Below, in pieces: positions 1 to 26,525 of a stretch of 36,888 nt of DNA. The stretch's first letter is position 1. Every line of letters begins with the position of its first letter. This stretch comes from Planctomycetales bacterium (lineage in GTDB: Bacteria; Planctomycetota; Planctomycetia; Pirellulales; Lacipirellulaceae), in NCBI GenBank assembly GCA_020427145.1, contig JAGQOU010000271.1:1-36888 (forward strand), in the 5' to 3' direction. The notes beneath the pieces are model-generated. The model saw only the letters and a program-made list of their open reading frames with translations, did no database searches and was not told the origin of the DNA. Made by a program: the position numbers and the translations under genes.

Positions 1-809
1 GGCGCGAAGTCGAGCGCCGACTCAATGACAATGCCGTTGACGGCGAGGTTCAGCGGACGCGGCGCTACGCCGTCGAGGGCGTAGCGAAACGTCAACTTGT
101 GGTTCGTCGTCTGCGCGGCGGTGACGTTCCACTCGATATAGCCATTCGTGGACATCACAAATTCGACGTACCCGCCGCCGTTGTAACCCGAACCAGAGGT
201 CGCCGCGACGACGCCTGAGAGGATCGCGTCCTCCGCCTGGAGGATGGCGGGCGGAGTCGCTGCATTGCTGACTTCGCTTTCGCCCCAGGCGCCGACGGCA
301 CTGACGACGTAGAAGTAGTCTTCGCTATCGGTCAGCCCTGTGTCGTTGAATGACGTTCCCGCGAGGCCCGTGGCGATCGTCGTGTACGGACCGCCGGCGT
401 CGGTCGCTCGTTTCACGTTGTAGCTGTCGGCGTCGGCCAGAGCATCCCAACTCAAATGAATCCACGGCGAACCGGTCGTGTAGCCGAAGCTGTGTGACCA
501 CACTTGTAGGTCGCCTCCGTCCACCACGCCGCTGCCGTCGCCGTCGGCACCGCTTTGCGGAGGCACGGCAGCGGTGAAACCTCGCTGCCAAAGCAGGAAA
601 TCTCCGCCATCTGCCGTACCGTCGCCGCTGTAGTCGCCGGGAAGCTGACTGACGTTTCCCCAGTCGGCATTCACGACGTTGCTCGTCGGCCATGTCGCGG
701 AAAGCACAATCCGCTGTTCGAGAGACTCGAAGCAAAGTCCGCGCTGCCGCCGCCTGTCGATTCGAGACGGATGCTTCGAGCCTGACGGGGCCAAGGCGAG
801 GAATCGCAT
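1..809 (-). CDS. LEPR-XLL secreted protein with N-terminal dockerin-like pair, Fn3 and CBM6/35-like domain (3' part off window)
   Basis: The reading frame is open from an ATG at 809 to the left edge; 269 residues are visible and the C-terminus is missing. Residues about 29-39 read SLEQRIVLSAT after an Arg-rich stretch, which matches the LEPR-XLL motif found at the N-terminus of many large planctomycete extracellular proteins. Two calcium-loop-like segments follow at about 59-71 (DYSGDGTADGGDF) and 89-101 (DGDGSGVVDGGDL), as in a type I dockerin. An Fn3-like domain lies at about 115-185 (WIHLSWDALADADSYNV). A new beta domain begins at about 188 (AILQAEDA), as CBM6/CBM35 modules do. The dockerin-like pair sits at the N-terminus, whereas the other three examples in this window are C-terminal. 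Any catalytic domain would lie beyond the left edge, so the activity is unknown. The reading frame is sure; the CBM family is inferred. Confidence 0.8.
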   Translation of the reverse strand, partial: MRFLALAPSGSKHPSRIDRRRQRGLCFESLEQRIVLSATWPTSNVVNADWGNVSQLPGDYSGDGTADGGDFLLWQRGFTAAVPPQSGADGDGSGVVDGGDLQVWSHSFGYTTGSPWIHLSWDALADADSYNVKRATDAGGPYTTIATGLAGTSFNDTGLTDSEDYFYVVSAVGAWGESEVSNAATPPAILQAEDAILSGVVAATSGSGYNGGGYVEFVMSTNGYIEWNVTAAQTTNHKLTFRYALDGVAPRPLNLAVNGIVIESALDFA

Positions 810-1339
810 ATGGCGGCGATTCGGCGAAGGGGATGCCATCAAATCTGCTCCGTGCGTCTCGCCTGGGACACGTGAACGCGCCCGTTACTTTGCCGACTAC
901 GCAATTGAATGCGATTTGGACATTCGATCCATTGTTCGGTCTGAGCCGTTGCGAAACGCCCCAAAAGTCCAACTGGCAATTGCGGAGCCTTCATCGTCGC
1001 GACGCGACAAGGCTATGTTTCAAAATGCGTGGCCGAGCGTGCGCTAACTCTCCCAAATGACCTCTAGCGCGTGCTCAACTGTGCCATCCCTATGGGTCCC
1101 CAGTCGGGTCGATGTATTGGCATCGATCATCGGGAAGTCAATCACGCTGTGACTCTTGGTTGAGCGACTGACTCACGATAGCAAGTGCGAATAGACGAAT
1201 AAAGACGGTGGCCTCGCTCTATTCTGGAGGCCCCCGTTCGACTGATTCATAAAGTGCTCGACATTCACACGCGCGCCGGCCCGCGATCGCCGCATCGCGC
1301 GGCGGAAAGCGCGTGCTCAGCGCAAAGCCTTCTTTCACG
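810..1339. other. Intergenic region, no gene seen
   Basis: These 530 bases separate two leftward genes and should hold the promoter of the truncated gene at 1-809. Codon use in the open frames here is unlike the neighbouring genes and none has a convincing start or ribosome binding site. A small inverted repeat, GGCCTC (about 1210-1215) with GAGGCC (about 1227-1232), is the only local structure noted, and it lacks a T-run. Nothing else is supported. Confidence 0.5.
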
Positions 1340-3898: not shown

Positions 3899-6745
3899 TT
3901 ATGCGGCGCCAAAGCGCAGCGATGCCGTGAAGACCGCGGTGCCAATGCCGACCGACAGCAACAGGGCCGCCGGGGGTTCGGGGACGACGGCACTGGTCGC
4001 TGACGAATTTGCGGATCCGAAATACGCCTGCCAGTCGGCGAGGTCGCCGACGTCGGGATCTCGCTGCCAAATCAAGAAGTCGTTCCCATCCACGTCGCCG
4101 TCGGCATCGAAGTCGCCCGGCAGCCCGCTGCTGACCAGTGCGTAGCCGACGCCGTCATACCAAGTGCGGGATGCGCTGCCGTTGGTCGTTTGCCAATCGT
4201 CAATGAACACGTCGATGTCATCCCCTCCGATCACCTCGGTGCGGCCCAGGTACGCCCGATACAATAGCAGGTCGTTGCTGTTGTCCGTGACGAGCTCGAT
4301 CGCGTCAAACTGGTCCGCCTCAGCGTGTTGCGAGCCGTAGCGGCGGAAGTCGACAAGATTGTCCGACTCGAGACCGGCGAGCAGTCGCCAGTCCTCGTCG
4401 TTGTCGCTCCAGAAATAGGCGAACACGTCGTACAGTCCGTCGTCCAAGTTGGCGAGCGTCGTCTTCAGCATCGGCGCGTCTTCTGTCCCTGATTCGTTCG
4501 AGGAAAGCACGCTTCCGCCGTTTCCAACCCCCGTTCGCAAGTGCCATTGGTCGTCGTCAGCGCCCGCAAACCCTGACGGCGCTGTGGTCGACAATTGTGC
4601 GTCATTGGCAAACGTCGTATTGTTCGCGTTGGCGTCTACGTAGCGACTGGCGCCGATGCTGCCGTTGCCCTCGACAATGCCGACGACCGCGGCGTTGATG
4701 TCGTGCGCCGTGTTGTAGTTGCCGCGGAACCAGAGGACCGTTCGCGGTCCGTTGCCGTGGTTGTCGGGCACAATCGGACGCAGGTTGTCGACGCCGGAAC
4801 TCTCGGTGATCGCGGTCCAGTTCCACTGCGAACCGTCGAACTCGCCCTTGTAGATTTCGCGGTTCGCGGTTTCGGTCACACCGGTCAAATCACGCGGATC
4901 GAACGCCGTCGAAATGTAGAGCGTGTCTTCGTCGCCTGGAACCAGCGCCCCGAGCCCCGTGTAATCTTCTTCCGGCTCGTACAGTCGCCCGCCCATCTTG
5001 GCGATTTCCTGGCAATCAAAGGATTGGGTCGTCGGATTCCAGCGCGCCATGTGGAGGCGGTGATCGATAGGATTGTTCGTACTGCCGTCGTTGGTTGAAC
5101 CGTCAATATTCCACCGCGAGGTGTACAGCGCCATCGGCAAGCCGTGTGAGTCGAGCGCCATGTCGGTCGTCCACAGCCGATTGTAGCCCTGCCCCAGCGG
5201 ATCGGCTGCCTGCACCTGCGTGAAATCGATGACGTCAGAGACAAATCCCGATCCGCCGGCGACGGTCCCGTTGTCGAAGATATCCGAGTCGATCACGTTG
5301 CCCAGCATGTCGAAGGTTTGTCCGTTTTCGATGTAACCCGCGTAGATGCTGTTGTTGAAATTGCGGGGATGGGTTTCCGTCGTAGTGAAATAAATGCGAT
5401 TGACGCCGTTGGATACGTACTTCGGATAGGCGGAATATCCCTGTGCCTGGCTTTCCAGCAACTGACCGCCCCACTCGACCGTGTTTGTGGCCATATCGTA
5501 TCGCATGATGTTCGGCATATTCTGCGACGCGCCATTGGTGGACAGCTGGCCGTGTGATCGCGAAATATTGTAGACTTGGTCCTCCGCCGAGAGATAGAAG
5601 AGGTTGTGATAGCTCACGTTGCCCGTTTCCGTGCTGCCCGTCTCGTTGGCGCCGGGCACTTCCTCGTGCCAATTGAAAAGTTGCTCCTCCGTCCACGAGG
5701 TGCTGTCGCCCGGTTTGATGGATCGACGCCAACGGCTCCATTCGTCGCCCAGGCCGCCGTTGTTTCCGTGGTTGGCGTACATGGCTAGATACCGTCCGTC
5801 CGGCAACACCAACAACGCCCCGACATTGTGGTCGTCGTTCTGGATCTGGGGGTTGCCAGTTTGATTGGAGAGCCGGGACCGCACGCGGCGACCGGTCGTT
5901 GGGTTGAAGTTGACCACGTCGACGTTGCCTGGATATCCCCCGCCCTGGACGGTCTCGTCAAATCCCACTGAATTCACCAGCACGTGACCATTGTTCGGAT
6001 CGACAATCGCGCGCTCGTCGGTATACCATGTCCAATTGCCATCACTGTCAAATTGAATCAGATTTCCGTGGACAATTCCGGTCGGCGTCTCCGGCGGCGG
6101 CGCCGGCTGGAGACTGGCGCTGATCGCGTCGAATGCGACGTTGCGGGCGCTCCCTGCGCCGCCGGGATTCAACTCGGAACCGATCGAGATGCGGAGCCTC
6201 GACGCGTTGGCAGGGACCAAGATCGACGCCGAATCGTCGACAAATCGCCAACCGCCGCTGGGCGCTTGTGCTTCAGCGCTATTGCCGCCGAGGTAGGAAT
6301 TGCCCGAATCGTAGAATTCGTAGCCGATCGACCCGAAATCGTTCCCGTCATTGACGTAGTAAGCGTAAGACAAGCCGAGGTAACGATCGCCTAGGCCAAT
6401 CTGCGAGCTGTAGGGGGACAGGTCGACGTCCTGATAAATCAGCGCGCTGTTAGCTGAACCTCCGATTAAGGAGTTCGCATTCGGCAAACCGGCGATTTCC
6501 CAACTCGCGGAGATGAATTGCGAGCCCTCGTATGCCAAGGACGGATTGGCCGAACCAATCGGCGAGTCGCCGATCCAATACGGGTTACTGCCGCCAGCAA
6601 CCGTCCATCCACTGGGAACGGTCGTTGCTGCACCCGTTTCGAAGCCGCCGTTGACGATCGGGAGATTGACTTGGCAGTTCGCCGTCGCCGGAGCGAGCAC
6701 GAGCCCGGCTAAGGCAAGCACAAGCGATGATGAGAAGCGAGACAT
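3899..6745 (-). CDS. Large secreted BNR_4-type beta-propeller protein with dockerin-like module and PEP-CTERM
   Basis: 948 residues from the ATG at 6745, where the signal peptide MSRFSSSLVLALAGLVLAPA begins; the frame stays open upstream to 6922 but without secretion features. Layout: a jelly-roll-like domain at about 28-215 (IVNGGFETG near its start); a BNR_4-type propeller at about 220-690 (NWTWYTDERA, DDHNVGALLVLPDG, HNLFYLS, RPIVPDNHG); a module at about 696-872 that ends in RTWYDGV and is shared with the protein at 18904; a dockerin-like loop (DFDADGDVDGNDFLIWQR) with a second half LADWQAYFG; and a PEP-CTERM tail starting at VPEPP. BNR_4 propellers are known from polysaccharide-active proteins, including some lyases, but no catalytic residues can be assigned here. 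The location next to xylan enzymes suggests a polysaccharide-active or -binding role; this is inference. Confidence 0.8.
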   Translation of the reverse strand: MSRFSSSLVLALAGLVLAPATANCQVNLPIVNGGFETGAATTVPSGWTVAGGSNPYWIGDSPIGSANPSLAYEGSQFISASWEIAGLPNANSLIGGSANSALIYQDVDLSPYSSQIGLGDRYLGLSYAYYVNDGNDFGSIGYEFYDSGNSYLGGNSAEAQAPSGGWRFVDDSASILVPANASRLRISIGSELNPGGAGSARNVAFDAISASLQPAPPPETPTGIVHGNLIQFDSDGNWTWYTDERAIVDPNNGHVLVNSVGFDETVQGGGYPGNVDVVNFNPTTGRRVRSRLSNQTGNPQIQNDDHNVGALLVLPDGRYLAMYANHGNNGGLGDEWSRWRRSIKPGDSTSWTEEQLFNWHEEVPGANETGSTETGNVSYHNLFYLSAEDQVYNISRSHGQLSTNGASQNMPNIMRYDMATNTVEWGGQLLESQAQGYSAYPKYVSNGVNRIYFTTTETHPRNFNNSIYAGYIENGQTFDMLGNVIDSDIFDNGTVAGGSGFVSDVIDFTQVQAADPLGQGYNRLWTTDMALDSHGLPMALYTSRWNIDGSTNDGSTNNPIDHRLHMARWNPTTQSFDCQEIAKMGGRLYEPEEDYTGLGALVPGDEDTLYISTAFDPRDLTGVTETANREIYKGEFDGSQWNWTAITESSGVDNLRPIVPDNHGNGPRTVLWFRGNYNTAHDINAAVVGIVEGNGSIGASRYVDANANNTTFANDAQLSTTAPSGFAGADDDQWHLRTGVGNGGSVLSSNESGTEDAPMLKTTLANLDDGLYDVFAYFWSDNDEDWRLLAGLESDNLVDFRRYGSQHAEADQFDAIELVTDNSNDLLLYRAYLGRTEVIGGDDIDVFIDDWQTTNGSASRTWYDGVGYALVSSGLPGDFDADGDVDGNDFLIWQRDPDVGDLADWQAYFGSANSSATSAVVPEPPAALLLSVGIGTAVFTASLRFGAA

Positions 6746-6946
6746 AGCTGCCAACTGCACTGGGAGTTTTTCGCGGAACGTCAATCTGGCGGGACTATTG
6801 AAATGTCGATTCCCGACTGCGATCGCGGAGACGGTTCCTGGGCCTCGCGTCGGTCTATGGGACGCATTCACGAGCCCGCCGCGAGGCCGTAGCGCTCCGG
6901 CGGAACTCTGGATGCTCCGCATCCTCAGTTAGCGACGGCATGCGTC

Positions 6947-7825
6947 TCAGATTGTCATGCTGGAGAAGCCCCCGTCGACAACAATATTCTGTCCGGTAAC
7001 GAAGGAGGAGGCCTTCGAGGAGGCCAGCCAGACAATCGCGCCGGCCAGTTCCTCCGCCGCCCCGAAGCGTTTCATCGGCGTATGCCCGATGATCTGGGCG
7101 CTGCGCTCTGTGGGCGAACCATCCTCGTTAAACAGCAACTTGCTGTTTTGCTCCGCAGGAAAGAAGCCCGGGCTGATGGCATTCACGCGAACGCCCCGCG
7201 CGGCCCACTCCAGCGCCAAATACTTTGTGAGGTTAATCACGGCGGCCTTGGCGGCCGAGTAGGCGCCGACCCGCGATACGGGGGTCATGCCTGCCATCGA
7301 GGCGATATTGACGATGCAGCCGCGACCGGCCGCGACCATCGCCTCGCCGAAGACGATTGAAGGCGCCAAGGCGCCGCCCAGAAGATTCAGATCGAACACG
7401 TCGCGCCACGCATCAAGCGGGATCTTGCACACGTCGCCCCCCGGTTTCAGCGTCGCATCCGGGTGATTGCCGCCGGCGGCGTTTACGAGCACTGTCGTTT
7501 CTCCCAATTCCTGCTGAATGGTTCGCATGGCTTCCAGCACGGAGTCGGCGCACATCGCGTCGATCCCCAGAAAAACTGAGATGCCGCCGGCGCGGTTGAT
7601 CTTTTCGGCGCGCGCTTGCCCCCGCTGTTTGTTCCGGCCCAGCACCACCACGGTTGCGCCAAACCGAGCCAGCGCCTCGGCCATCAGTCCTCCGAGGACG
7701 CCGGTTCCGCCAATCACCGCCGCGACCTCCCCGGTGAGATCGAACAAATCGCCCGGTACGTTGAGTGACGCATGGACCCGCGCGGCAGACGCGGCGTCGG
7801 CGGGAAGGGCAACGGATTTGGGCAT
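6947..7825 (-). CDS. SDR family oxidoreductase, probable D-mannonate oxidoreductase (fructuronate reductase)
   Basis: 292 residues from the ATG at 7825; an in-frame TTG at 7873 would add 16 residues, and neither has a good Shine-Dalgarno. A classical short-chain dehydrogenase: the nucleotide-binding GGTGVLGG is at 39-46, NAAGGN at 115-120, and catalytic Ser176, Tyr189 and Lys193 (YSAAK) are present. The insert GGNHPDATLKPGG and the PGFFPAEQNSKLL segment after VNAISP are typical of SDR-type mannonate oxidoreductases, which interconvert fructuronate and mannonate with NAD(P)H. It is unrelated in fold to the long-chain UxuB of E. coli, so no symbol is given. Support for the role is the mannonate dehydratase gene at 14929 and the alpha-glucuronidase at 27384. 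It is cytoplasmic and on the same strand as the XylR-type gene 223 bases upstream, which may control it. Confidence 0.8.
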   Translation of the reverse strand: MPKSVALPADAASAARVHASLNVPGDLFDLTGEVAAVIGGTGVLGGLMAEALARFGATVVVLGRNKQRGQARAEKINRAGGISVFLGIDAMCADSVLEAMRTIQQELGETTVLVNAAGGNHPDATLKPGGDVCKIPLDAWRDVFDLNLLGGALAPSIVFGEAMVAAGRGCIVNIASMAGMTPVSRVGAYSAAKAAVINLTKYLALEWAARGVRVNAISPGFFPAEQNSKLLFNEDGSPTERSAQIIGHTPMKRFGAAEELAGAIVWLASSKASSFVTGQNIVVDGGFSSMTI

Positions 7826-7984
7826 GAGCGGATTGGCGGAGCAGGTTTCAGATCGGCGCAAGCGATCGTACAATCGCGGCCGCGAGGAACGACGCTGCCG
7901 CGACGCCCGGGCAACAGGCGCCCGTCGCCGACGACATCCTCAAGTCCCGATTTTAGTTCTTAATGGGAAACCCGGCACGCAAAG

Positions 7985-8010
7985 AATTGCGCAAACAAAT
8001 TACGCGAATG
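7985..8010. promoter_or_regulatory. Weak tandem 13-bp direct repeat upstream of the SDR gene
   Basis: AATTGCGCAAACA (7985-7997) is followed directly by AATTACGCGAATG (7998-8010), agreeing at 9 of 13 positions. It lies in the gap between the XylR-type regulator and the SDR gene. AraC/XylR regulators are known to bind tandem half-sites, so this could be such a site. Chance is a real alternative, since the repeat is short and imperfect. Confidence 0.2.
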
Positions 8011-8048
8011 CGATTGCTCACGTCGCGTTTGTTGCTGCACGGCCGCAG

Positions 8049-9224
8049 TCAATGAGAGAGTTCCGACCGGAACTTGCCAGGCGTTTTGCCCACGCGTTGC
8101 TGAAAGAATTGGATGAAATATCCCACGGTGCCAAATCCAGCAAGCTTCGCGACGCGTGACACCGAATGGGGCGTTTCGAGCAACAATCGCTTGGAATGCT
8201 CAAGTTTGGCGAGCTGCACCTCTTCGAGTATGCTGCGGCCCAGGATTGCTCGAAATCGCTTTTCCAAGCTGCGGCGCGAGACCGCCAATTCATCGACAAT
8301 TCTCTCGACCGATACGTCCTTGCCTTGATTGCGATGAATCAGCTGCAGCGCTGCAGAGATATCGTCGTCGTCGACCGCAAAGATCTCGCTCGACCGACGG
8401 GCCACAACGCAAAGAGCCTCGACAGGCAACGACCGCGGCTCTCGAATGCGCCCCGACATAAGACCGTCCAGAAGCTGTGCGGCGCGGTAGCCCGCCGTTT
8501 CGATATTTAGCGAAACGCTGGACAACGGCGGATCGGCGAGATCGCAGAAGACTTCGTCATTGTCGACGCCAACGACCGCAACGTCTTCCGGCACCCTGCA
8601 TCCGGCGAGCGTACACGCTTCTAAGACCTCGCGACCGCGGTCGTCGTCGCAAGCGAACAGCCCAATCGGTTTGGGCAGATTGCGGATCCATTCGGCGAGA
8701 ACAGCTTGCTCGCGCTCCCAAGCCTGTTCGGTCTTCCTGGTTGGCGCCGGATAGACGTGCAGGTTGACATTGCGAGCGCTGAGGTAGTCTCGGAACGCCG
8801 ACTCCCGCCGGGAGGACCATCCGCGATCGTTGCTGCCAACATACGCCAAGCGGCGAAACCGCCGTTCGAGCAGGTGATCCGCAGCGAGACGCGACACCTC
8901 GGCCGCGTCAGAACTGACCTCAGACAGGTATTGCAAGGGGCTGTCCGCGGCCAGCTGTTCGTCGGTCAAGCCGATTGCGATCGTGGGAAGGCCCGCTTCC
9001 AGGATGCGTCGTGCGACCCGCTCGTTGGGGATCCGTGCGATGATGCCGGTGCCTCCCCACTGTTTCATTTTCGGGACGACCTGCTCGTAGTCGCCCGGAC
9101 TTATATGAAAGCTCCAGGGTCCGTACTCATGTGCGTACCGGGCGATCCCGCGAAGAAAATCCCGACCGAACACGCGGGACGTTTCGACAAGCAGGGCAAC
9201 GCGAGCTCTTGGCTGCTGGGACAT
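8049..9224 (-). CDS. xylR: XylR-type transcriptional regulator (LacI-like sensor domain, AraC DNA-binding domain)
   Basis: 391 residues from the ATG at 9224; a GTG at 9236 would add 4. The length and order match the XylR family. Residues about 8-275 form a periplasmic-binding-protein-like sensor (RVALLVETSRVFGRDFLRGI, then FACDDDRGREVLEAC and VAVVGVDNDEVFCDLADPPLSSV). The C-terminal 100 residues hold an AraC-type double helix-turn-helix (VERIVDELAVSRRSLEKRFR and VSRVAKLAGFGTVGYFIQFF, ending RVGKTPGKFR). In the family the sensor binds xylose or a related sugar and the protein activates catabolic genes. The gene is divergent from a LacI-type regulator, and the two share a 549-base intergenic region with a repeated operator-like site. 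The ligand here is not known; xylose or a uronate is plausible from context. Confidence 0.85.
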   Translation of the reverse strand: MSQQPRARVALLVETSRVFGRDFLRGIARYAHEYGPWSFHISPGDYEQVVPKMKQWGGTGIIARIPNERVARRILEAGLPTIAIGLTDEQLAADSPLQYLSEVSSDAAEVSRLAADHLLERRFRRLAYVGSNDRGWSSRRESAFRDYLSARNVNLHVYPAPTRKTEQAWEREQAVLAEWIRNLPKPIGLFACDDDRGREVLEACTLAGCRVPEDVAVVGVDNDEVFCDLADPPLSSVSLNIETAGYRAAQLLDGLMSGRIREPRSLPVEALCVVARRSSEIFAVDDDDISAALQLIHRNQGKDVSVERIVDELAVSRRSLEKRFRAILGRSILEEVQLAKLEHSKRLLLETPHSVSRVAKLAGFGTVGYFIQFFQQRVGKTPGKFRSELSH

Positions 9225-9505
9225 TGGCGAGTTCACACAGAGCGACGAGATGAGAAAAGGGAGAGTTGCTCCTACTGATTCGTCACAACCATCGTCTTCG
9301 TCGAAGGCGACCCCCGAGAACCACGGGCTCCGCCATGCCCGCGGCCCGACTCGTCATAAGGCGTGTCGCGATGACAGCAGCCGGGTCACTTCAATCAACC
9401 CGCTCGACGCCGACCAAAGTCGCCCGCCGTTTCGCGGCGCCATACTGCGCCGGGGAGATGCCAAGGCGAGCGCTTGTCATCCGCCGGTACGGCGAGCATT
9501 CTGCA

Positions 9506-9524
9506 CATTTCGCCAGCGCTGTCA
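9506..9524 (+). promoter_or_regulatory. Operator-like site, copy 1
   Basis: CATTTCGCCAGCGCTGTCA. The core CAGCGCTG is a perfect palindrome with a central CG step, as in many LacI-family operators, and TGNCAGCGCTGNCA symmetry nearly holds. The second copy at 9726-9744 matches on the opposite strand at 18 of 19 bases. It is inferred to bind the LacI-type protein encoded at 9774. Confidence 0.55.
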
Positions 9525-9725
9525 AATTTGCCTCGCGAATCCTGGACAGGTCGATGTTTTCCTCGATATAGTGGTGCGACAACCCCGAGATTTTGGCAGA
9601 GTTCATCGAACCACCCGGGCCATATCCCCACTTTCTTGAAGCGAATCTCTGGGTTTCGTGCGGATTGCGTCGGGCGGGGACTTCCGCGCCTCACTCAGCC
9701 TGCAAGCAGATTTAAGAAACCAGAG

Positions 9726-9744
9726 TGACAGCGCTGGCAAAATG
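9726..9744 (-). promoter_or_regulatory. Operator-like site, copy 2, just upstream of the LacI-type gene
   Basis: On the minus strand this reads CATTTTGCCAGCGCTGTCA, differing from copy 1 at a single base. It ends 29 bases before the GTG start of the LacI-type gene, a position suited to autorepression. Spacing between the two copies is about 220 bases, so DNA looping between the divergent promoters is possible; this is inference. Confidence 0.55.
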
Positions 9745-9773
9745 TACCGAGTGAACCTGACGAGGAGCCCGTC

Positions 9774-10772
9774 GTGCAGCCAACCATCGAGGAGATTGCG
9801 AAGCGCGCCGGAGTCTCGACCTCCACCGTCGCTCGCGCCTTGCGCGGCGACCTGAAAGGGGCGCAACGGCGCAGCGTGGAAAGGGCGCTGGAGATCCGCC
9901 GCATTTCAGAAGAGTTGGGCTATCGCCCCAGCTGGCGTGCGCGAGCGCTTTCGAAAGGCAAAACGCATTCTATCGGCCTCCTCTACTCCGACCCAATGTG
10001 GATCTTCGAAGATCCGATGAACGACATCGCAGTCGCGCTCACCGAGTCGTTACAAACGCTCAGGTACGACCTGCGCCTCATCCCCGTCACCAAGGATCAG
10101 CAGTGGAAAGAACTCGTCTACGGCGGTGCCGTGGACGCCGTGGTATTTCTCACCAGCGTCCCGGAAGCGACGCGGGAGGTGCTCGCAAGCCAAATTGTGC
10201 CTGTCGTCCTGGTCGGCGATAAGTCCGACGAGGTCCCCTCAATCGTTCCTGACGACGAAGCCGGAGGATATCTTGCCACGCGTCACTTACTGGGCCTCGG
10301 CCACGAACGAATCGTCTACTTCGTCAGCGACACGATCCGCCCGCACTACAGCATCGAAGAGCGACGCACTGGGTATGAGCGGGCGATGCGCGAGGCCGGA
10401 TTGAAAGGCCAGCTGATGGTCTGGAACTGCGGCATCGCCGAGGCGATGGGCAAGCTCCTGTCGCGCGACAGGCCGACCGCCATGATCGGATATTGTCATG
10501 TCGAGGCCTTGGGAATTACCCACGGGGCGTGGTCGCACGGCCTCTCCATTCCGACCGATTTGAGTTTGGTCACGTTCAATGACATGGCGATGACGCGGTA
10601 CATGACTCCGCCTTTGACGGTCATCAGCTACGATGCGGCCGAAATGGGGCGAATCGGCGCACAGATGCTGGCCGAAGCGATCGAAGCCAAATCGTCCGTC
10701 GAGGCCGTGAACGTGGTCTTGAGCGAAACGTTGATCGCGCGCGGGACGACCGCTCCGCCCGCATCGCGATAG
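9774..10772 (+). CDS. LacI-family transcriptional regulator
   Basis: 332 residues starting at a GTG preceded by GAGGAG with a 7-base spacer, which fixes the start. Residues 3-50 are the LacI helix-turn-helix (IEEIAKRAGVSTSTVARALR) with an unusually long stretch (GDLKGAQRRSVERALEIRRI) before the hinge-like LGYRPSWRARALSKGKT. The rest is a periplasmic-binding-like effector domain (HSIGLLYSDP, VDAVVFLTSV, IVPDDEAGGYLATRHLL, PTAMIGY, LSLVTFND). It probably represses its own gene and the symporter gene 27 bases downstream through the operator-like sites at 9506 and 9726. The effector is unknown, but a xylan-derived sugar or aldouronic acid would fit the neighbourhood. Confidence 0.85.
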   Translation: MQPTIEEIAKRAGVSTSTVARALRGDLKGAQRRSVERALEIRRISEELGYRPSWRARALSKGKTHSIGLLYSDPMWIFEDPMNDIAVALTESLQTLRYDLRLIPVTKDQQWKELVYGGAVDAVVFLTSVPEATREVLASQIVPVVLVGDKSDEVPSIVPDDEAGGYLATRHLLGLGHERIVYFVSDTIRPHYSIEERRTGYERAMREAGLKGQLMVWNCGIAEAMGKLLSRDRPTAMIGYCHVEALGITHGAWSHGLSIPTDLSLVTFNDMAMTRYMTPPLTVISYDAAEMGRIGAQMLAEAIEAKSSVEAVNVVLSETLIARGTTAPPASR

Positions 10773-10799
10773 ACAAACCAAGGATAAGGCAGGCGGACC

Positions 10800-12233
10800 T
10801 TGAATAGTCGCGAACCCAGTGCAGTCACCCCGGGCGGCAAGCTGTCTGTGACCGAGAAACTCGGCTACAGCCTCGGCGATTGCGCGGCAAACTTCGTGTT
10901 TCAGACGCAGCTCATATTTTTGATGAGCTTTTACACCGATGTGTTCGGCATCGCGGCGTCGACGGTCGGGACGATCTTCTTGGTCTCGCGACTCTTCGAT
11001 GCAATCAATGATCCCCTCATGGGCGCCCTTGCAGATCGCACCAGCACGCGGTGGGGCAAGTACCGTCCTTGGGTGCTGTTGACCGCCCTGCCTTTCGCGA
11101 TCTTCTTTGTTCTGACTTACACGACGCCTGCCTTGGGCGCAAACGGGAAGGTGATCTGGGCGTTCGTCACCTACAACCTGCTGATGATCGCCTACACGGC
11201 GAACAACATCCCGTATGCGGCGCTGACGGGAGTGATTACGGGCGATCCTGACGAGCGCACTTCGCTCGTTTCCTGGCGTTTCTTGCTGGCGATGACGGCC
11301 GCATTTCTCGTGCAGACTTTCACTCCCGATTTGGTCGACTGGTTCGGCGGCGGCGGCGATGGCGGCCAAATCGACCAAGCGCGGGGCTACCAATGGACGA
11401 TGGGCATGTGGGCGACGATTGCCGTCGTCTTTTTCGTGATCACTTTCATGACCACGCGAGAACGCGTCCAACCCGATCCTGCGCAGAAATCGTCTTTGCT
11501 ACAGGACGTGACGGACTTGCTAAAGAACCGCACCTGGCTCTCTCTTGGCATGGCGACGGTGCTTGTTTTCGTCTACCTGTCAATGCGCGGGAGCGTCACC
11601 CCGTACTACTTCAACTATTTCGTGGCGCAGCAAGAGCCGATTGGCTTCGGTCCGCTGCGGCTGCAGCCGATGGGGTGGTTCAACGGCCTCGGTCTGCTGG
11701 CCACCATGTTCGGCATCCTCTTTTCCAAAGCGCTGTCGATCCGCTTTGGCAAACGCAATACATTCAGCGCAGCGATCGGATTGACTGGACTGCTCACGGC
11801 GGCGTTCTGGATGCTTCCGCCCGACGCGTTGTCGGCGATGATCGCCCTGCAGATGTTGCTGCAGTTTGTGTACGGAATCAGCATCCCGCTGTTGTGGGCG
11901 ATGATGGCCGATGTCGCGGATTTCACGGAGTGGAAAACCGGCCGGCGGGCAACGGCGATGACCTTTGCGGCAACCGTGTTTGCGCTGAAGCTCGGCCTGT
12001 CAGTGGGAGGCGCCCTCACCGGTTGGTTGCTTGACCTGAACGGCTACGCGCCGAAGGCTGAGACCCAGTCCGCCGATGCGACGTCCGCGATTCGCATGAT
12101 GATGAGCATCGGACCGGCCGCGGCCTTCGGGCTCGCGGTTCTGACGCTGCGATTCTATAGCATCGGCCGCCGCGATGAGGTCCAGATGGGCGAGGAACTT
12201 CAAGCCCGCAGGCTAGCTTACGAGAACGAATAA
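10800..12233 (+). CDS. GPH-family sugar:cation symporter (MFS fold)
   Basis: 477 residues from a TTG at 10800; a GTG at 10848 is the other possible start, while the first ATG would remove the conserved first helix. The opening EKLGYSLGDCAANFVFQ and the segment FDAINDPLMGALADRTSTRWGKYRPW are hallmarks of glycoside-pentoside-hexuronide:cation symporters such as XylP, XynB/YicJ and GusB. About twelve hydrophobic segments are seen. It is an inner-membrane protein that would import xylosides, xylo-oligosaccharides or glucuronides with a cation. It is 27 bases downstream of the LacI-type gene and presumably in one operon with it. The substrate is inferred from the nearby GH3, uxuA and GH115 genes. 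Confidence 0.85.
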   Translation: MNSREPSAVTPGGKLSVTEKLGYSLGDCAANFVFQTQLIFLMSFYTDVFGIAASTVGTIFLVSRLFDAINDPLMGALADRTSTRWGKYRPWVLLTALPFAIFFVLTYTTPALGANGKVIWAFVTYNLLMIAYTANNIPYAALTGVITGDPDERTSLVSWRFLLAMTAAFLVQTFTPDLVDWFGGGGDGGQIDQARGYQWTMGMWATIAVVFFVITFMTTRERVQPDPAQKSSLLQDVTDLLKNRTWLSLGMATVLVFVYLSMRGSVTPYYFNYFVAQQEPIGFGPLRLQPMGWFNGLGLLATMFGILFSKALSIRFGKRNTFSAAIGLTGLLTAAFWMLPPDALSAMIALQMLLQFVYGISIPLLWAMMADVADFTEWKTGRRATAMTFAATVFALKLGLSVGGALTGWLLDLNGYAPKAETQSADATSAIRMMMSIGPAAAFGLAVLTLRFYSIGRRDEVQMGEELQARRLAYENE

Positions 12234-12237
12234 TTTC

Positions 12238-12259
12238 GCAGCCGCAAATTGCTGCTTTT
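12238..12259 (+). terminator. Possible weak terminator after the symporter gene
   Basis: A 5-bp stem, GCAGC (12238-12242) with GCTGC (12251-12255), around an 8-base loop, is followed by TTTT. It starts 4 bases after the symporter stop codon, in the gap between convergent genes. The stem is short, so this is tentative. Confidence 0.25.
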
Positions 12260-12359
12260 GCGCATGCTTGCGCTCACAGCGCGCTCGATTCGGCCCGGGG
12301 GCGCCGACGCCAAATCGCTTTGGTATCAGCTCGCGCGAGGCGCATGGAAATAGGCGTCA

Positions 12360-14678: not shown

Positions 14679-14928
14679 AAGCGGAAGCACCACCGAACAA
14701 GACAGGACGAGCGGAACGAAACAGCCGGCGCCAGAACACCAATCCTGAAGTCTACGGACTCGGAATTCAATGCCGACTGCGCGATTGCGTAGAAATATGC
14801 CGCAATTGCGGACGGAACATAACCACCGGTTGTCTGAGCTTCGACGGCGAAGAACAATGTGAGTACGCACGGAGTCGACGGCGAATTCACCGCGACGCAT
14901 CTTTGCGCGCTGAAGGGCTCTCTTGCTG
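14679..14928. promoter_or_regulatory. Divergent promoter region of GH3 and uxuA
   Basis: 250 bases between divergently read genes of the same pathway; both promoters must be here. The 19-bp operator-like sequence found at 9506 and 9726 is not present. No other clear palindrome was found. Confidence 0.4.
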
Positions 14929-15990
14929 ATGAAACTCGGCCTTGGACTTTACCGTCACTTGCTGACGCCGGCAAACTTTCGATTCGCGCGGCAGTGTGGC
15001 GCCACGCATTTGGTCGCGCATCTCGTGGACTATTTTCGCGGCGCTCCCGATAATCCGCCGGGCGACCAGCCCACGGGCGGCGACCACGGCTGGGGCTTGG
15101 CGGGCGACTCGCGCCGGCTGTGGACCGTCGACGAGATCGTTGCCGTTCGAGATGCGGCGCGGGCCGAAGGACTCCAGCTCGAGGCCATCGAGAACCTCGA
15201 TCCAGCTCATTGGCACGACGTCTTGCTCGACGGCCCTCGCCGTGACGAGCACATCGAGAACGTCAAGACGACACTACTTCGACTTGGCGAGGCTGAAGTG
15301 CCGATTCTTGGGTACAACTTCAGCATTGCAGGCGTGTGCGGCCGCATCGCAGGTCCCTTCGCCCGCGGAGGCGCCGTGGCAATCGGCATGGACGGACCCT
15401 ATGACGCACCCATGCCGCTCGGCATGGCATGGAATATGGTTGTCAATCCGCACGCACAAGCCGGCGACGTCCCGCCGGCGACGCACGAACAGCTCTGGGA
15501 TCGGCTCGCCCGGTTTCTCGACGCGGTGCTCCCGGTAGCGGAGAAGTCCGGCGTACGCATTGCACTCCACCCGGACGATCCGCCGATGGAGTCCATGCGC
15601 GGCCAACCAAGGTTGGTCTACCGCCCCGAGCTGTACCAGCGGGTGATCGACCTGGCCGCCAGCCCATCGAACCAGCTTGAATTCTGCATCGGAACGATTG
15701 CCGAAATGCAGGACGCCGACGTCTACGAGGCGACCCGACGGTTTGCCGACCAGGGTCGAATCGGGTACGTCCACTTGCGAAACGTTCGCGGCCGCGTACC
15801 GCATTATCGCGAGACCTTTATCGACGATGGCGACGTTGACGTCCCGCGAGTCCTGCAGATTCTCCACGAGAACGGATTCGAGGGCGTCATCATTCCCGAT
15901 CACGCTCCACGAATGACGTGCGACGCCCCCTGGCATGCCGGAATGGCTCACGCGATGGGGTACCTGCGCGCGGCGATCGACGCGACGTGA
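14929..15990 (+). CDS. uxuA: Mannonate dehydratase
   Basis: 353 residues from the ATG at 14929; a TTG at 14923 with GAAGGG 5 bases upstream is an equally possible start adding 2 residues. It converts D-mannonate to 2-keto-3-deoxy-D-gluconate in the cytoplasm, a step of hexuronate breakdown. Family signatures are seen along the length: GDHGWGL, LEAIENLDPAHWHDVLLDGPRRDEHIENVK, LGYNFSIAGVCGR, RIALHPDDPP, EFCIGTIAEM, VHLRNVRGRVPHYRETFIDDGDVD and IIPDHAPRM. These include the His, Cys and Asp metal ligands typical of the family. The length matches the short UxuA type of about 350-360 residues. Together with the SDR at 6947 it forms the fructuronate-mannonate-KDG route for glucuronate freed by the GH115 enzyme. 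Confidence 0.93.
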   Translation: MKLGLGLYRHLLTPANFRFARQCGATHLVAHLVDYFRGAPDNPPGDQPTGGDHGWGLAGDSRRLWTVDEIVAVRDAARAEGLQLEAIENLDPAHWHDVLLDGPRRDEHIENVKTTLLRLGEAEVPILGYNFSIAGVCGRIAGPFARGGAVAIGMDGPYDAPMPLGMAWNMVVNPHAQAGDVPPATHEQLWDRLARFLDAVLPVAEKSGVRIALHPDDPPMESMRGQPRLVYRPELYQRVIDLAASPSNQLEFCIGTIAEMQDADVYEATRRFADQGRIGYVHLRNVRGRVPHYRETFIDDGDVDVPRVLQILHENGFEGVIIPDHAPRMTCDAPWHAGMAHAMGYLRAAIDAT

Positions 15991-21900: not shown

Positions 21901-23319
21901 GTTAACGGCGGTCTGGGCGACGACGGCCTGAGCATCAGCAATAACATCACCGGCGCCGCCGACGGTGCGCTCACCGCGAACGTCGGTCCCGATTCGCTCA
22001 TGACCGTCACCGGCAACATCACCAACAACGGCTCGTTGACGAAGTTCGGGTCCGGAACGCTCGCCCTTGGGGCGGCCACGGTCGTCACTTCCCCGGAACT
22101 CGTAGTCAATGGCGGTTCGCTCGACGTCACAGCCCAGGCCGCGCTCCCGCTCGGCAGCGGTCAGACGCTCTCGGGCAGCTTTGGCACAGTGACTGGTAAT
22201 GTGAATGCGCTAAGCGGCTCGACAGTCCGCGTGGGGCAGACGGGGCTGCCGTCTGGCACGATCTACACCTACACGGACGCAAACTGGACTGCAGGTGGGA
22301 ATACCGTCGTGGCAAGCGATGATAGTACGCCCACGGTAGCCGCCAATAACACGCAGCCTTCGGCACTCTGGTCTCCGCGAACTCCCTTCGCAAACGGCGG
22401 CTCCGTTCTTCAGGGTCGACTTGACGCGAATGCAGACCAAGCCCCGACGCTCAAGACGACCATCAGCGGGCTTACCCCCAATCAGGAGTATGAAGTACTG
22501 GTTGATTATTGGAACGATGGATCGGGCTGGCATATTCTTGCGGGAGATTCAGCGGGCAGTCTGACCCTCTTTGATCCCGGAAACAGCATCGTCACGACCG
22601 GGTTAACCTATGGCTCGGCGGTTCTGACGACCGAAGGTAATCGCACCATGTGGGGAGCGCCGCTCACGCTCACCGCAAACGGATCCGGAGAAATTGAGGT
22701 GTTCATCGACGAGATGAGCGCCACGCCCAACCCTCGCACTTGGTATGACGGCGTCAGCATCGCCGCTGAGACCGTTATTGGCCAAACCTTTACGATCGAC
22801 GGTGATTTGACGCTGAACTCCGGTTCAACGCTGGCGCTGGACATCGCCACGCCGGCGGCATCGGATTTGCTAACGATTACCGGCAGCTTCGCGGCCGGGG
22901 GCGCCTTGGACGTTACGCTCGACGCGGCAGCGCCCGCTCCTTCGCTGGGCGACGTGTTCACCATTCTTGATTTCGCCAGCGCCAGCGGCGCTTTCAATTC
23001 GCTTGTCCTGCCGGCGCTGGGCGCAGGCCTGGGCTGGGACACGAGTAGTCTTCTGACCACTGGCGAGTTGAGCGTTGTGGAGTTTGCCGGCCTGCCTGGC
23101 GACTTCAACAATGACACCAAGGTCAACGGAGCCGACTTCCTGGCGTGGCAGCGCGGCTACCCCGCGACTTACGACGCAGCGGATCTGGCGGATTGGCAGT
23201 CCAACTACGGAACAACGGCGTCGTTCGCAACGAGTGGCGCGGTTCCTGAGCCGACTGGCTTGGCGCTGGCGGCCTGTCTGGCAGCGCTCGCCGCGGCAGG
23301 GCTGCGCCGCGGTCGTTGA
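18904..23319 (+). CDS. Giant autotransporter-associated beta-strand-repeat surface protein with dockerin-like module and PEP-CTERM
   Basis: 1471 residues. The ATG at 18904 has GAGG about 11 bases upstream and starts a clear signal peptide (MKTAFAAILGLLLIAGPASA). About 20-215 is a PEP-CTERM-type beta domain. From about 220 to 1110 there are PATR-type repeats, e.g. LTKSGGGNLALTGANTYAGT, GAKTFAGTIDVNGGTLAI, GSGTLTIRT, and GSLTKFGSGTLALGA, which predict a long parallel beta-helix. Residues about 1117-1290 are the module ending PRTWYDGV shared with the BNR protein at 3899. Another beta segment, a dockerin-like loop (DFNNDTKVNGADFLAWQR with LADWQSNYG) and a VPEPT PEP-CTERM tail complete it. No outer-membrane autotransporter barrel is present, so anchoring must depend on the PEP-CTERM route. 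It is likely a surface adhesin or matrix protein; no catalytic motif is seen. Confidence 0.85.
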   Translation: MKTAFAAILGLLLIAGPASAVVIVSGTGTGALDTTGLSAGFTYDLQGGGNTLVFGTYVDNNYTASNILFDGAAPSGTIQNGRSFLAYYYNPDSSVNISFDTSAGNANGGYFLYELNYVDTTLAADLGTDASITTTSADRFVVDYMGINFADGAGSTPAVGSIISSSTITNFNGAIGGGALASGTGFAGAAGVQTLGWTLNGSGTGEISAAFAPAAGGPTPWNVNGGGSFNVGANWVGGNVPVSNPFFGAAHATNTTANITLDSPVSVSSMTISNSNRYNLTGPSALTLTGAAEILVGEGTHEISAVIAGSAGLTKSGGGNLALTGANTYAGTTNVQGGSLQLPAPGSVNGAVNVAAAGQLNFTAGYNGAFSGDISGDGNVLLDASRTTEIVTFSGAKTFAGTIDVNGGTLAISNSSALGAGDGTPATQTRVNEFGGQGTGKLALSGNINVANELLILGPRRGEGVADLVHLTSAGNNTWGGNIKGDANGDNYNFESTSGTLTLSGTMSAPDGNDGVRNFVFSGAGNFNVTGKIIDFETNDNGVKDVASLDTQVNVYVNKQGSGTLTIRTATAQEDDFWRGGTVVEGGTLEVISNGANAGELWGPIEVRSGATLDVDHFGTYSLQVGQSLSGGGTIQATGKTVAIFDDNSISPGDGVGTLTINGNATLSDVGGGGGVLSFELGNDPNTVGGTENDLIQINGSLSTSGAPNMTVSVTAAEGQVTAGKYRLISHAGGAVNVTGLTAQFLDELGNPLTARQTLGVSSAAGQVNLDVTGSSKSLTWTGANSMAWDKNTTANWNDGSGADVFYDVDQVTFNDSAGANTTVDISGADVYPSLAAFDSATGNTYTITGSNGFGGTTPINLTGDVTVALQNTNNLQGNVNIGADATLELGGGSVVSGNIAGAGSLVINGGATLASANSLTGPITISSQVFPQNGGALGAAAAGTTLLPGANLWYNFQNLAVAEPFTFAGGQINVAGNADSALALSGLITVDAAGGTILVNGGLGDDGLSISNNITGAADGALTANVGPDSLMTVTGNITNNGSLTKFGSGTLALGAATVVTSPELVVNGGSLDVTAQAALPLGSGQTLSGSFGTVTGNVNALSGSTVRVGQTGLPSGTIYTYTDANWTAGGNTVVASDDSTPTVAANNTQPSALWSPRTPFANGGSVLQGRLDANADQAPTLKTTISGLTPNQEYEVLVDYWNDGSGWHILAGDSAGSLTLFDPGNSIVTTGLTYGSAVLTTEGNRTMWGAPLTLTANGSGEIEVFIDEMSATPNPRTWYDGVSIAAETVIGQTFTIDGDLTLNSGSTLALDIATPAASDLLTITGSFAAGGALDVTLDAAAPAPSLGDVFTILDFASASGAFNSLVLPALGAGLGWDTSSLLTTGELSVVEFAGLPGDFNNDTKVNGADFLAWQRGYPATYDAADLADWQSNYGTTASFATSGAVPEPTGLALAACLAALAAAGLRRGR

Positions 23320-23655
23320 CGGCCCGGGAATCCAACTTGAGAGAACGGGGTGAAGGTGGCGGTCGCGGACGTCAAGGGCGCCCGCGGCCGCGCCGATTTG
23401 GTCAGTTGGTTTTGCCGGTAAGCGTCAAACGCCTCGCTTGTTTTTCGTCGACTGGGCGGCAACTGGAATTCTTGAGGTCGTTCGCTGCTAGATCCTTTCC
23501 GACCGTCCGATCATTGCTAGGGCTGACTCGTCACCCAGACGTCGTTGTTCCCGAAAGCTCGAATCGACTCCGCGAATTTGTTTCGCGGAGTCGGTGTCGA
23601 AATTTGAAATACTCACTACGAATCTTTTCGTAAGACCCGAAAAGGATTTTCTATC
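23320..23655. other. Intergenic region with a strong hairpin
   Basis: 336 bases between the giant beta-repeat gene and the DUF1559 gene. Its main feature is the 12-bp hairpin at 23565-23593. No gene is recognised here. Confidence 0.5.
23565..23593 (+). terminator. Perfect 12-bp hairpin, terminator or 5' leader structure
   Basis: CGACTCCGCGAA (23565-23576) pairs perfectly with TTCGCGGAGTCG (23582-23593) around a 5-base loop. No long T-run follows, only GTGTCGAAATTTG, so it is either a T-poor terminator of the upstream gene or a structure in the leader of the DUF1559 gene, whose start is 62 bases further on. The stem itself is certain; its role is not. Confidence 0.5.
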
Positions 23656-24753
23656 ATGCACTCGCAATTCCCTCGACTCGCCACGGAGCATCGTCGTTCC
23701 GGCTTCACACTGGTCGAATTGTTGGTGGTGATCGCCATTATTGGCGTCCTGGTGGCCTTGCTGCTTCCCGCCGTCCAGGCGGCCAGAGAAGCAGCGCGTC
23801 GCATGCAATGCACCAACAATCTCAAGCAGATCGGCGTTGCGGTCCACAACTACGAGGGAGCTTTCGGCGAGGCGCCCGGCGGATCGTCTTATCCGAATTA
23901 TTTCACTGGCCAAAACTATTGGAAGAACGGCGACCGCGTGGAATGGAACTGGATCACGGCACTCATGCCGTATATGGAGCAGCAGGCGCTGAAGGATTCG
24001 TTCAGCATGACATACGGCGCAAGCAGCGGCACTTGGCCGGGAGACGGCGCCGCGACGACTCCCGGCACCAACAACGCCCGCTGCGCGGAAGCGCGGATTC
24101 CCAGCATGTTGTGCCCCAGCGATCCCTTTTCAACGCTCGGCCTCAAGCCGCCGGGAGAACTCAAGAAATACTGGATTGAGAATCCTGATAGTGCTCAAGG
24201 GAATTCTTACATGGGTTCTCTTGGTCCAACGGCCCAGGACATTTGTCCGTTCGACGACGCCGCTGACGTCTGCATGGGGACTTCCTGGGGGACGCAACCA
24301 GCGACTGGCTTTGGGGCTGCTCCATGCTACAGCAATGGAGATAGTTGCCCACAAAGCGGGAAATGCGTTGGCATGATTTGCCGAAGCCCGGATGGGGTTC
24401 CTTTCCGCTCGGTCACGGATGGACTTTCAAACACCTATTTGGCCGGCGAGACGTTGGCGGACGACAGCAATCGCAACTGCATCGTGTGTACCAACAGCCC
24501 GCTGGCGACTACGCAGATTCCTCTCAACACGCAATACAGTTGGAGGATTGATCCCGATGCGTATTACATATTCAACGGGTTCAAAAGCGACCACCCCGGC
24601 GGCGCCAACATGGTGCTTGCCGACGGTTCGGTGAACTTCGTCCAAGAGGATATTGACTACAGGATGTGGAACCATTTTGGGACCACCGCCGGAGCGGACG
24701 GCGAATGGTCCAAGCAACAGACTGGTAGCGGAGGAGGAGGAACCGGTCGATGA
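23656..24753 (+). CDS. DUF1559 prepilin-like protein with H-X9-DG C-terminal motif
   Basis: 365 residues; the ATG at 23656 follows AAGGA with a 9-base spacer. The type IV prepilin-type N-terminus is clear: cleavage at Gly16-Phe17, then FTLVELLVVIAIIGVLVALL, then PAVQAAREAARRMQCTNNLKQIG. Near the C-terminus HPGGANMVLADG has the histidine, nine residues, then DG of the planctomycete H-X9-DG processing-associated domain. Such proteins occur in dozens per genome in Planctomycetes and are thought to build pseudopilin-like or envelope structures; the role is not established. Several Cys pairs (CPFDDAADVC, CIVC) suggest disulfides. It overlaps the lipoprotein gene by the ATGA at 24750-24753, so the two are co-translated. 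Confidence 0.9.
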   Translation: MHSQFPRLATEHRRSGFTLVELLVVIAIIGVLVALLLPAVQAAREAARRMQCTNNLKQIGVAVHNYEGAFGEAPGGSSYPNYFTGQNYWKNGDRVEWNWITALMPYMEQQALKDSFSMTYGASSGTWPGDGAATTPGTNNARCAEARIPSMLCPSDPFSTLGLKPPGELKKYWIENPDSAQGNSYMGSLGPTAQDICPFDDAADVCMGTSWGTQPATGFGAAPCYSNGDSCPQSGKCVGMICRSPDGVPFRSVTDGLSNTYLAGETLADDSNRNCIVCTNSPLATTQIPLNTQYSWRIDPDAYYIFNGFKSDHPGGANMVLADGSVNFVQEDIDYRMWNHFGTTAGADGEWSKQQTGSGGGGTGR

Positions 24754-26314: not shown

Positions 26315-26525
26315 CGTACGAAGAGTCAATTCGCGACGCCGTGACCACTGTTTGTCATAATGACTGGCTGCTCTCGTTTCGCGGCAAGGAGCTCGTTTTC
26401 TGCGACGGCCACGCGTACGTCTCGCAAACGTCCGTCGAAGCGATCAACACCAACGGCGTCCTATCAACTAACAAGCGGGGTGATGAGCAACGACACCGTA
26501 GCGCCTTCGCCTCGTCCAAGTGTTC

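What the first reader, a model, noticed from the sequence alone, without database searches (positions are those of the whole stretch)
4130..4660. Undescribed-looking module shared by the BNR protein and the giant beta-repeat protein
About 175 residues before the dockerin-like module of the BNR protein align by eye with residues about 1117-1290 of the protein at 18904 (22255-22775). Shared points in order: YVDANANN/YTDANWTA, GNGGSVL/ANGGSVL, APMLKTTLANL/APTLKTTISGL, YDVFAYFWSD..DWRLLAG/YEVLVDYWNDG.GWHILAG, IDVFIDDWQ/IEVFIDEMS and RTWYDGV in both. I do not recognise it as a named domain. It looks like a jelly-roll, possibly sugar-binding, mobile between unrelated architectures.
Basis: seen in the sequence. 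Interest (0 to 1): 0.6.

Follow-up and report, generated by a model that had tools for sequence, protein, structure and literature searches.

The report
New sugar-binding-like module in PVC bacteria

Summary
Window 4130-4657 (minus strand) and 22255-22773 (plus strand) encode the same domain: BLASTP E = 4e-16, and a profile built only from other organisms finds both (E 7.6e-47 and 3e-39) and nothing else in the window. The domain matches no Pfam or NCBIfam family and has only a local fibronectin-like resemblance in PDB sequences. It forms a patchy family in Planctomycetota, Verrucomicrobiota (including Akkermansia) and KSB1, with four copies in this genome. It is attached to BNR_4 propellers (most often), PATR beta-repeat proteins, CotH/LTD and LamG proteins, or stands alone before a PEP-CTERM. 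AlphaFold2 (pLDDT 91) gives a beta-sandwich closest to CBM6/35/36/61-type and xanthan-binding modules (Z 9-10), but profile-profile comparison with CBM6 and CBM35 equals shuffled controls. The window is a glucuronoxylan-utilisation locus. The BNR_4 partner folds as a GH145/PL42/PL25 propeller with an invariant His-His-Tyr-Arg spacing like the lyases. Best reading: an undescribed CBM-like family that ties a uronate-acting propeller enzyme and a fibrous surface protein to polysaccharide. Binding and ligand are inferred, not shown.

The parts
4130..4657 (-). Module copy A, in the BNR_4 protein (residues about 756-931 of the 1007-aa ORF)
   Evidence: Independent profile hit E = 7.6e-47, model positions 4-183 of 184; AlphaFold2 model of 4127-4660 pLDDT 91.3
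22255..22773 (+). Module copy B, in the PATR beta-repeat protein (residues about 1118-1290)
   Evidence: Independent profile hit E = 3e-39, model positions 4-182 of 184; BLASTP to copy A E = 4e-16
3899..6922 (-). ORF of the BNR_4 protein carrying copy A, 1007 aa as an ORF; a more likely start is the ATG at 6745 (residue 60), just before a signal-peptide-like stretch (inferred)
   Evidence: BNR_4 E = 3.2e-12 at residues 359-604
4667..6073 (-). Seven-bladed beta-propeller domain (BNR_4) directly before the module, predicted GH145/PL42/PL25-like
   Evidence: AlphaFold2 of propeller plus module pLDDT 80.9, pTM 0.87; Z 31.3 to 5mum, 30.0 to BT3686, 28.1 to FoRham1, 27.5 to PLSV_3936
4008..4123 (-). 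Dockerin-like GDFDADGDVDGNDFLIWQR stretch
   Evidence: Sequence; no cohesin found in the genome
3899..3988 (-). PEP-CTERM-like tail (VVPEP, hydrophobic stretch, R)
   Evidence: Sequence; three exosortase genes in the genome
18904..23319 (+). PATR beta-repeat protein carrying copy B, 1471 aa
   Evidence: PATR E = 1e-11, four stretches, no autotransporter barrel; TIGR02601 E = 1.6e-9
23092..23211 (+). Dockerin-like stretch of the PATR protein
   Evidence: Weak, sub-threshold Dockerin_1 hit at residues 1398-1415; sequence
23239..23316 (+). PEP-CTERM-like tail of the PATR protein
   Evidence: Sequence
23656..24753 (+). DUF1559/SBP_bac_10 pseudopilin-like gene, conserved next to the PATR gene
   Evidence: E = 5.7e-47 plus N-methylation motif; synteny in L065, L066, L067
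24750..25193 (+). 147-aa predicted lipoprotein, conserved in the same cassette
   Evidence: Sequence with lipobox-like LLAVGC; synteny

Best explanation
The segment is a mobile domain of about 175 residues with a CBM6/CBM35-like beta-sandwich fold, and it most likely works as a carbohydrate-binding module. Shown: the shared domain, its family, its predicted fold and its gene context. Inferred: that it binds polysaccharide. In the BNR_4 protein it would hold a beta-propeller enzyme, probably acting at uronic acids, on glucuronoxylan or a similar acidic glycan. In the PATR protein it would sit near the tip of a beta-helical or fibrous surface protein anchored through a PEP-CTERM, and so fix the cell or its surface layer to the same polymer. 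Both proteins are exported; the dockerin-like stretch is probably a calcium-binding spacer and not a cellulosome part, since no cohesin was found.
For: Homology of the two copies. Family in 27 loci of other genomes, in 14 of 58 other related genomes with up to 9 copies each. Model pLDDT 91.3; top Foldseek match is the xanthan-binding MiXBM 7ehg, E = 8e-5 (identity of MiXBM from PMC10881899); best VIA-align Z 10.1 is the C-terminal module of Paenibacillus xanthan lyase 6f2p, then CBM35, CBM36 and CBM61 at Z 8.8-9.9 over 120-130 residues. Window genes: GH43-CBM6, XylR and LacI regulators, MFS_2 sugar transporter, GH3, UxuA, GH10, GDSL esterase, GH115, esterase-malectin-GH10, SASA, Sde182. BNR_4+module, PATR+module, DUF1559 and lipoprotein genes stay together in relatives, with GH43, GDSL or GH10 homologues (GH2 and GH43 neighbours in L069). 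BNR_4 found in 11 of 29 other module proteins scanned, ten above cut-off.
Against: Z near 10 is only moderately above the 7-8 typical of unrelated beta-folds, and the same fold occurs in non-sugar domains (Cry toxins, Eph receptors, MAM domains are in the same list). Profile comparison with CBM6 and CBM35 shows no sequence relationship. Several paralogous cassettes outside this locus have no xylan enzymes beside them in the stretches read, so the ligand need not be xylan in all members.
Confidence: 0.66

Rival explanations
1. The module is a structural or assembly domain of surface fibres: a beta-sandwich spacer or protein-protein interaction domain that docks partner proteins in a cassette, with no glycan binding.
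For: It sits directly before dockerin-like and PEP-CTERM tails in most Planctomycetota members, recurs with PATR fibres and next to DUF1559 pseudopilins, and occurs with CotH/LTD surface proteins. The two-domain model has pTM 0.87, which suggests a fixed packing on the propeller.
Against: In Verrucomicrobiota it is often N-terminal, right after the signal peptide, and its closest folds are carbohydrate-binding. It is repeatedly joined to a carbohydrate-active propeller fold.
Confidence: 0.22
2. A very diverged member of CBM35, CBM6 or another existing CAZy CBM family, missed by the profiles on hand.
For: Same fold and same order of first and last strands (model residues 3-176 align to nearly whole CBM35 chains, Z about 9).
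Against: hhalign probability below 1% against CBM35 and CBM6 profiles made from related genomes, equal to shuffled and reversed controls; no hit to any CBM model in Pfam for any of 48 members at E <= 1. CAZy families without a Pfam model could not be searched.
Confidence: 0.1
3. A part of the catalytic unit: the module helps form the active site of the propeller enzyme and was carried to other proteins as a degenerate copy.
For: Frequent partnership with BNR_4 and predicted rigid packing.
Against: Stand-alone and PATR-linked copies keep the same conserved residues, and in several proteins the module is N-terminal or about 150 residues away from the propeller.
Confidence: 0.04

Closest known systems
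Xanthan-binding modules: MiXBM of Microbacterium xanthan lyase (PDB 7ehg) and the C-terminal module of Paenibacillus xanthan lyase (6f2p residues 900-1040)
   Same: Best Foldseek match (E 8e-5) and best VIA-align match (Z 10.1, rmsd 3.7, 130 residues); both attached to polysaccharide lyases
   Different: 12-15% sequence identity; xanthan is not the substrate suggested by this locus; no profile-level relationship was shown
CBM35, CBM6, CBM36 and CBM61 beta-sandwich families
   Same: Fold over 118-130 residues, Z 8.4-9.9; attached to secreted carbohydrate-active enzymes; first and last strands correspond
   Different: No sequence relationship by hhalign to CBM35 or CBM6; about 45 residues longer; own motif set YVDA...NTT...WxxR...NGG...LxTTxxGLxxGxYxVxxxFW...W...AG...R...LG...G.I.V.IDD...RTWYDGVGY
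GH145 / PL42 / PL25 / PL24 seven-bladed propellers (partner domain only)
   Same: Fold Z 27-31; invariant His, His 20 residues later, Tyr and Arg as in PL25 PLSV_3936 and PL42 FoRham1
   Different: 12-14% identity; no sequence-level hit in PDB; found in a glucuronoxylan locus and not an ulvan or gum arabic one
Fibronectin type III
   Same: A stretch of about 25 residues, TTITGLTPGxxYxVYV
   Different: No member passes the Pfam threshold; match is local, and the domain is almost twice as long

Membership tests
CBM35 (PF16990) | Profile match to the family | tested here: not met
   0 of 48 members hit at E <= 1; hhalign probability 0.9% against a CBM35 alignment from relatives, shuffled controls up to 0.7%
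CBM35 (PF16990) | Beta-sandwich CBM fold | tested here: met
   Z 9.2 to 2w1w, 124 residues, rmsd 3.4, on a predicted model
CBM35 (PF16990) | Calcium-assisted binding of uronic acid or related sugars | not testable with these tools
   No coordinates or binding data
CBM6 (PF03422) | Profile match to the family | tested here: not met
   No Pfam hit; hhalign probability 0.4%, same as shuffled
Carbohydrate-binding modules as a class | Discrete module of 40-200 residues joined to carbohydrate-active enzymes | tested here: met
   About 175 residues; joined to BNR_4 propellers of GH145/PL42/PL25 fold and inside a xylan locus
Carbohydrate-binding modules as a class | Demonstrated glycan binding | not testable with these tools
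   Needs protein
Fibronectin type III (PF00041) | Pfam gathering score | tested here: not met
   Best E among 48 isolated members 0.018; one whole protein reaches 24.1 against 25 bits
Cellulosomal dockerin (neighbouring stretch) | Matching cohesin in the genome | tested here: not met
   No PF00963 match at E <= 0.01 in a 72% complete genome; incompleteness leaves some doubt
PEP-CTERM/exosortase substrates (both window proteins) | PEP motif, hydrophobic stretch, basic end, and an exosortase in the genome | tested here: met
   Tails read; three exosortases. The window tails themselves did not reach the PF07589 threshold
PL25/PL42/PL24/GH145 (partner propeller) | Seven-bladed propeller fold | tested here: met
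   Z 27.5-31.3, lectin propellers next at 24.6
PL25/PL42 (partner propeller) | Catalytic His, Tyr and Arg in the active site | tested here: inconclusive
   Invariant residues with matching spacing (against residues); positions not superposed

The most novel reading that the evidence does not exclude
The module founds a new CBM family specific to PVC and allied bacteria, and its partner is a new beta-propeller lyase or hydrolase family acting on the uronic acid side chains of glucuronoxylan; together with the PATR fibre, pseudopilin and lipoprotein they form a surface apparatus that captures xylan.
Probability: 0.3. Interest if true: 0.7.

Novelty: new variant of a known kind. Interest (0 to 1): 0.5.

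Why it matters
Planctomycetota and Verrucomicrobiota degrade many complex polysaccharides with large secreted proteins that are mostly unannotated. A recognisable module shared by enzymes and surface fibres gives a handle on how these bacteria attach to their substrates, lets dozens of hypothetical proteins be annotated (including proteins in Akkermansia-labelled genomes), and points to an untested propeller enzyme subfamily in a xylan locus.

Tried and rejected
Fibronectin III and T-box hits in the PDB sequence search: local motif matches only. CBM6 and CBM35 membership by profile-profile comparison: no better than shuffled controls. Cellulosome reading of the dockerin-like stretch: no cohesin. 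Spread on viruses or plasmids: none of six pattern matches in viral contigs encodes a relative, no plasmid match. Xanthan specificity from the top fold hits: not pressed, since fold does not give ligand and the locus is for xylan. PDB sequence search with the propeller profile found only weak sialidase-repeat matches. Literature: no paper prints the RTWYDG motif; searches on PEP-CTERM and Planctomycetes gave no description of the module, but only open-licence papers were searched. Architecture labels used for the tree were assigned by crude motif rules, so counts of shuffling events are rough.

Full report
WHAT WAS CLAIMED AND WHAT IS THERE. This holds. The minus-strand segment 4127-4660 and the plus-strand segment 22255-22775 align over their length by BLASTP with 33% identity and E = 4e-16. 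A profile made from 46 homologous rows of other organisms, with both window sequences left out, finds exactly two significant places in six frames of the window: 4130-4657 (-), E = 7.6e-47, and 22255-22773 (+), E = 3e-39. The reversed-sequence control gives none.

THE TWO HOST PROTEINS. The first (3899-6922 minus, 1007 aa as an ORF; probable start at residue 60, inferred from the signal-peptide-like stretch) has a BNR_4 domain (E = 3.2e-12, residues 359-604), then the module, a dockerin-like GDFDADGDVDGNDF stretch and a PEP-CTERM-like tail. The second (18904-23319 plus, 1471 aa) has PATR beta-strand repeats (E = 1e-11; TIGR02601 E = 1.6e-9) but no autotransporter barrel, then the module, a linker, a dockerin-like stretch and a PEP-CTERM-like tail. 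The genome has three exosortase genes and no detectable cohesin, so the tails point to exosortase-type surface sorting, and the dockerin-like stretch is probably not a cellulosome part.

A FAMILY NOT IN THE LIBRARIES. None of 48 aligned members hits a Pfam family above cut-off or any NCBIfam family at E <= 0.01. Against PDB sequences only a local fibronectin-like stretch scores. The family is real and patchy: four copies in the window's genome; 27 loci in other species genomes from Planctomycetota, Verrucomicrobiota, Akkermansia-labelled MAGs and a KSB1 MAG, found through a single motif and therefore a lower bound; 14 of 58 other related genomes, but only 7 of 291 other sampled Planctomycetota and 4 of 145 sampled Verrucomicrobiota, one of which was the chosen centre. 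The most conserved positions, in copy A numbering, are Y7 D9 A10 N14 T15 W39 R42 L65 T67 L72 G75 Y77 W84 W91 G139 R165 T166 W167 Y168 D169 G170 Y173.

ARCHITECTURES. Pfam scans of 29 other module proteins show BNR_4 in eleven (ten above cut-off), and PATR, CotH with lamin-tail domains, LamG, Ig, or nothing else in the rest. The KSB1 member ends in a type IX secretion tail (Por_Secre_tail) where planctomycete members end in PEP-CTERM. The module may be C-terminal, N-terminal just after the signal peptide, double, or alone before a PEP-CTERM. In a tree of 84 modules the BNR-linked and the PATR-linked copies each cluster more than chance but neither is a single clade, and phyla intermix (architecture labels there are crude).

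FOLD. AlphaFold2 with the 48-row alignment gives mean pLDDT 91.3 and pTM 0.88, with eleven strands of three or more residues and one short helix. Foldseek's best match is the xanthan-binding module MiXBM (7ehg, E = 8e-5; from Microbacterium xanthan lyase, PMC10881899). VIA-align's best are the C-terminal module of Paenibacillus xanthan lyase (Z 10.1), then CBM35, CBM36 and CBM61 chains at Z 8.8 to 9.9, each over about 120-130 residues. These Z values are modest and the list also holds non-sugar jelly rolls, so the fold class is clear while the family is not. Comparison of the 48-row profile with CBM35 and CBM6 alignments taken from related genomes gives hhalign probabilities below 1%, like shuffled columns. 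So the domain is filed under the CBM-like beta-sandwich fold and not under CBM6 or CBM35. That D9 in the first strand and D169 in the last could form the structural calcium site known from CBM6-type modules is inference and was not tested.

THE PARTNER ENZYME. The BNR_4 domains joined to the module share 40 invariant positions in 14 sequences, including DDH, a second His exactly 20 residues on, a Tyr, an Arg 17 residues after it, and HPR. PL25 PLSV_3936 has His123, His143, Tyr188 and Arg204, and PL42 FoRham1 has His85, His105, Tyr150 and Arg166 (PMC13193363; PMC8377490). The two-domain model (pLDDT 80.9, pTM 0.87) matches GH145 (Z 31.3 to 5mum, 30.0 to BT3686), PL42 (28.1) and PL25 (27.5), with lectin propellers next at 24.6; PL24 is among the top Foldseek matches. 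The partner is therefore most likely a carbohydrate-active propeller acting at a uronic acid. Whether it is a lyase was not tested.

GENE CONTEXT. Reading outward, the window holds a CBM35-like fragment, a PEP-CTERM protein, GH43-CBM6, the BNR_4-module gene, a short-chain dehydrogenase, a XylR-type AraC regulator, a LacI regulator, an MFS_2 sugar transporter, GH3, UxuA, GH10, the PATR-module gene, a DUF1559 pseudopilin-like gene, a 147-aa lipoprotein, a GDSL esterase, a short ORF with a GH2 C-terminal domain, GH115, esterase-malectin-GH10, a SASA acetylesterase and Sde182. From established roles of GH10, GH43, GH115, acetyl esterases and UxuA this is a glucuronoxylan-utilisation locus. In related genomes the BNR_4-module and PATR-module genes lie within one 20-kb stretch, with DUF1559 and the lipoprotein next to the PATR gene and GH43 or GDSL homologues nearby (L065, L066, L067). 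A further locus, L069, has the BNR_4-module gene (65% identity) with GH10, GH2 and GH43 neighbours. DUF1559 genes are common (58-109 per genome), about one per 60-90 kb, yet 13 of 15 20-kb stretches around module genes hold one where about four would be expected; the stretches are not independent. Other cassettes with diverged BNR_4-module genes (37-39% identity) lack xylan enzymes in the stretches read, so other members may have other ligands.

MECHANISM, WITH STATUS OF EACH STEP. (1) Two secreted proteins share one domain: shown. (2) The domain has a CBM-like beta-sandwich fold: predicted with high confidence. (3) It binds polysaccharide: inferred from fold, partners and locus. (4) In this locus the ligand is glucuronoxylan or a part of it: weaker inference. 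(5) In the BNR_4 protein it targets a uronate-acting propeller to substrate; in the PATR protein it puts a binding head near the end of a surface fibre: inferred. The main rival is a purely structural or docking role.

VERDICT. A correct and well-spotted observation; a new domain family of a known structural kind. It is useful and annotatable, and not a new class of system.

Noticed in passing
   Followed up: partly
window 18904-25193 (+): PATR-module gene, DUF1559 pseudopilin-like gene and a 147-aa lipoprotein form a cassette conserved in related genomes (L065, L066, L067).
   Followed up: partly
window 3-35898: The window is nearly all one glucuronoxylan-utilisation locus (GH43, GH3, two GH10, GH115, acetyl esterases, XylR, LacI, MFS_2, UxuA, Sde182).
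   Followed up: yes
L003/L080 (G000:C506): An 1153-aa open frame runs from a BNR protein with its own dockerin and PEP-CTERM straight into a second signal-peptide-like stretch, module, dockerin and PEP-CTERM without a stop; a true fusion or an assembly error.
   Followed up: no
L066 about 6231-13787 and L067 about 6632-14941: Between the PATR and BNR_4 genes of two relatives lies an open frame of about 2860-2910 aa with several CBM6/CBM35-like repeats, related to the CBM35-like fragment at window 3-842.
   Followed up: no
L074, L075 and others: Paralogous cassettes (LamG protein, PEP-CTERM jelly-roll protein, diverged BNR_4-module, in L074 also PATR-module, and DUF1559) occur away from xylan genes; they may be parallel systems for other glycans.
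   Followed up: partly
L031, L032, L033: Akkermansia-labelled and related gut MAGs carry an N-terminal module joined to BNR_4, about 95% similar among themselves and on a long branch.
   Followed up: no
window 26520-27356 (+): A 278-aa ORF matches only the C-terminal end of GH2 C5 domains, while a relative (L069:1274-4153) has a full GH2 in a similar place; perhaps a decayed GH2.
   Followed up: no
window 36062-36871 (-): Transposase-domain (DUF772) gene at the contig end.
   Followed up: no
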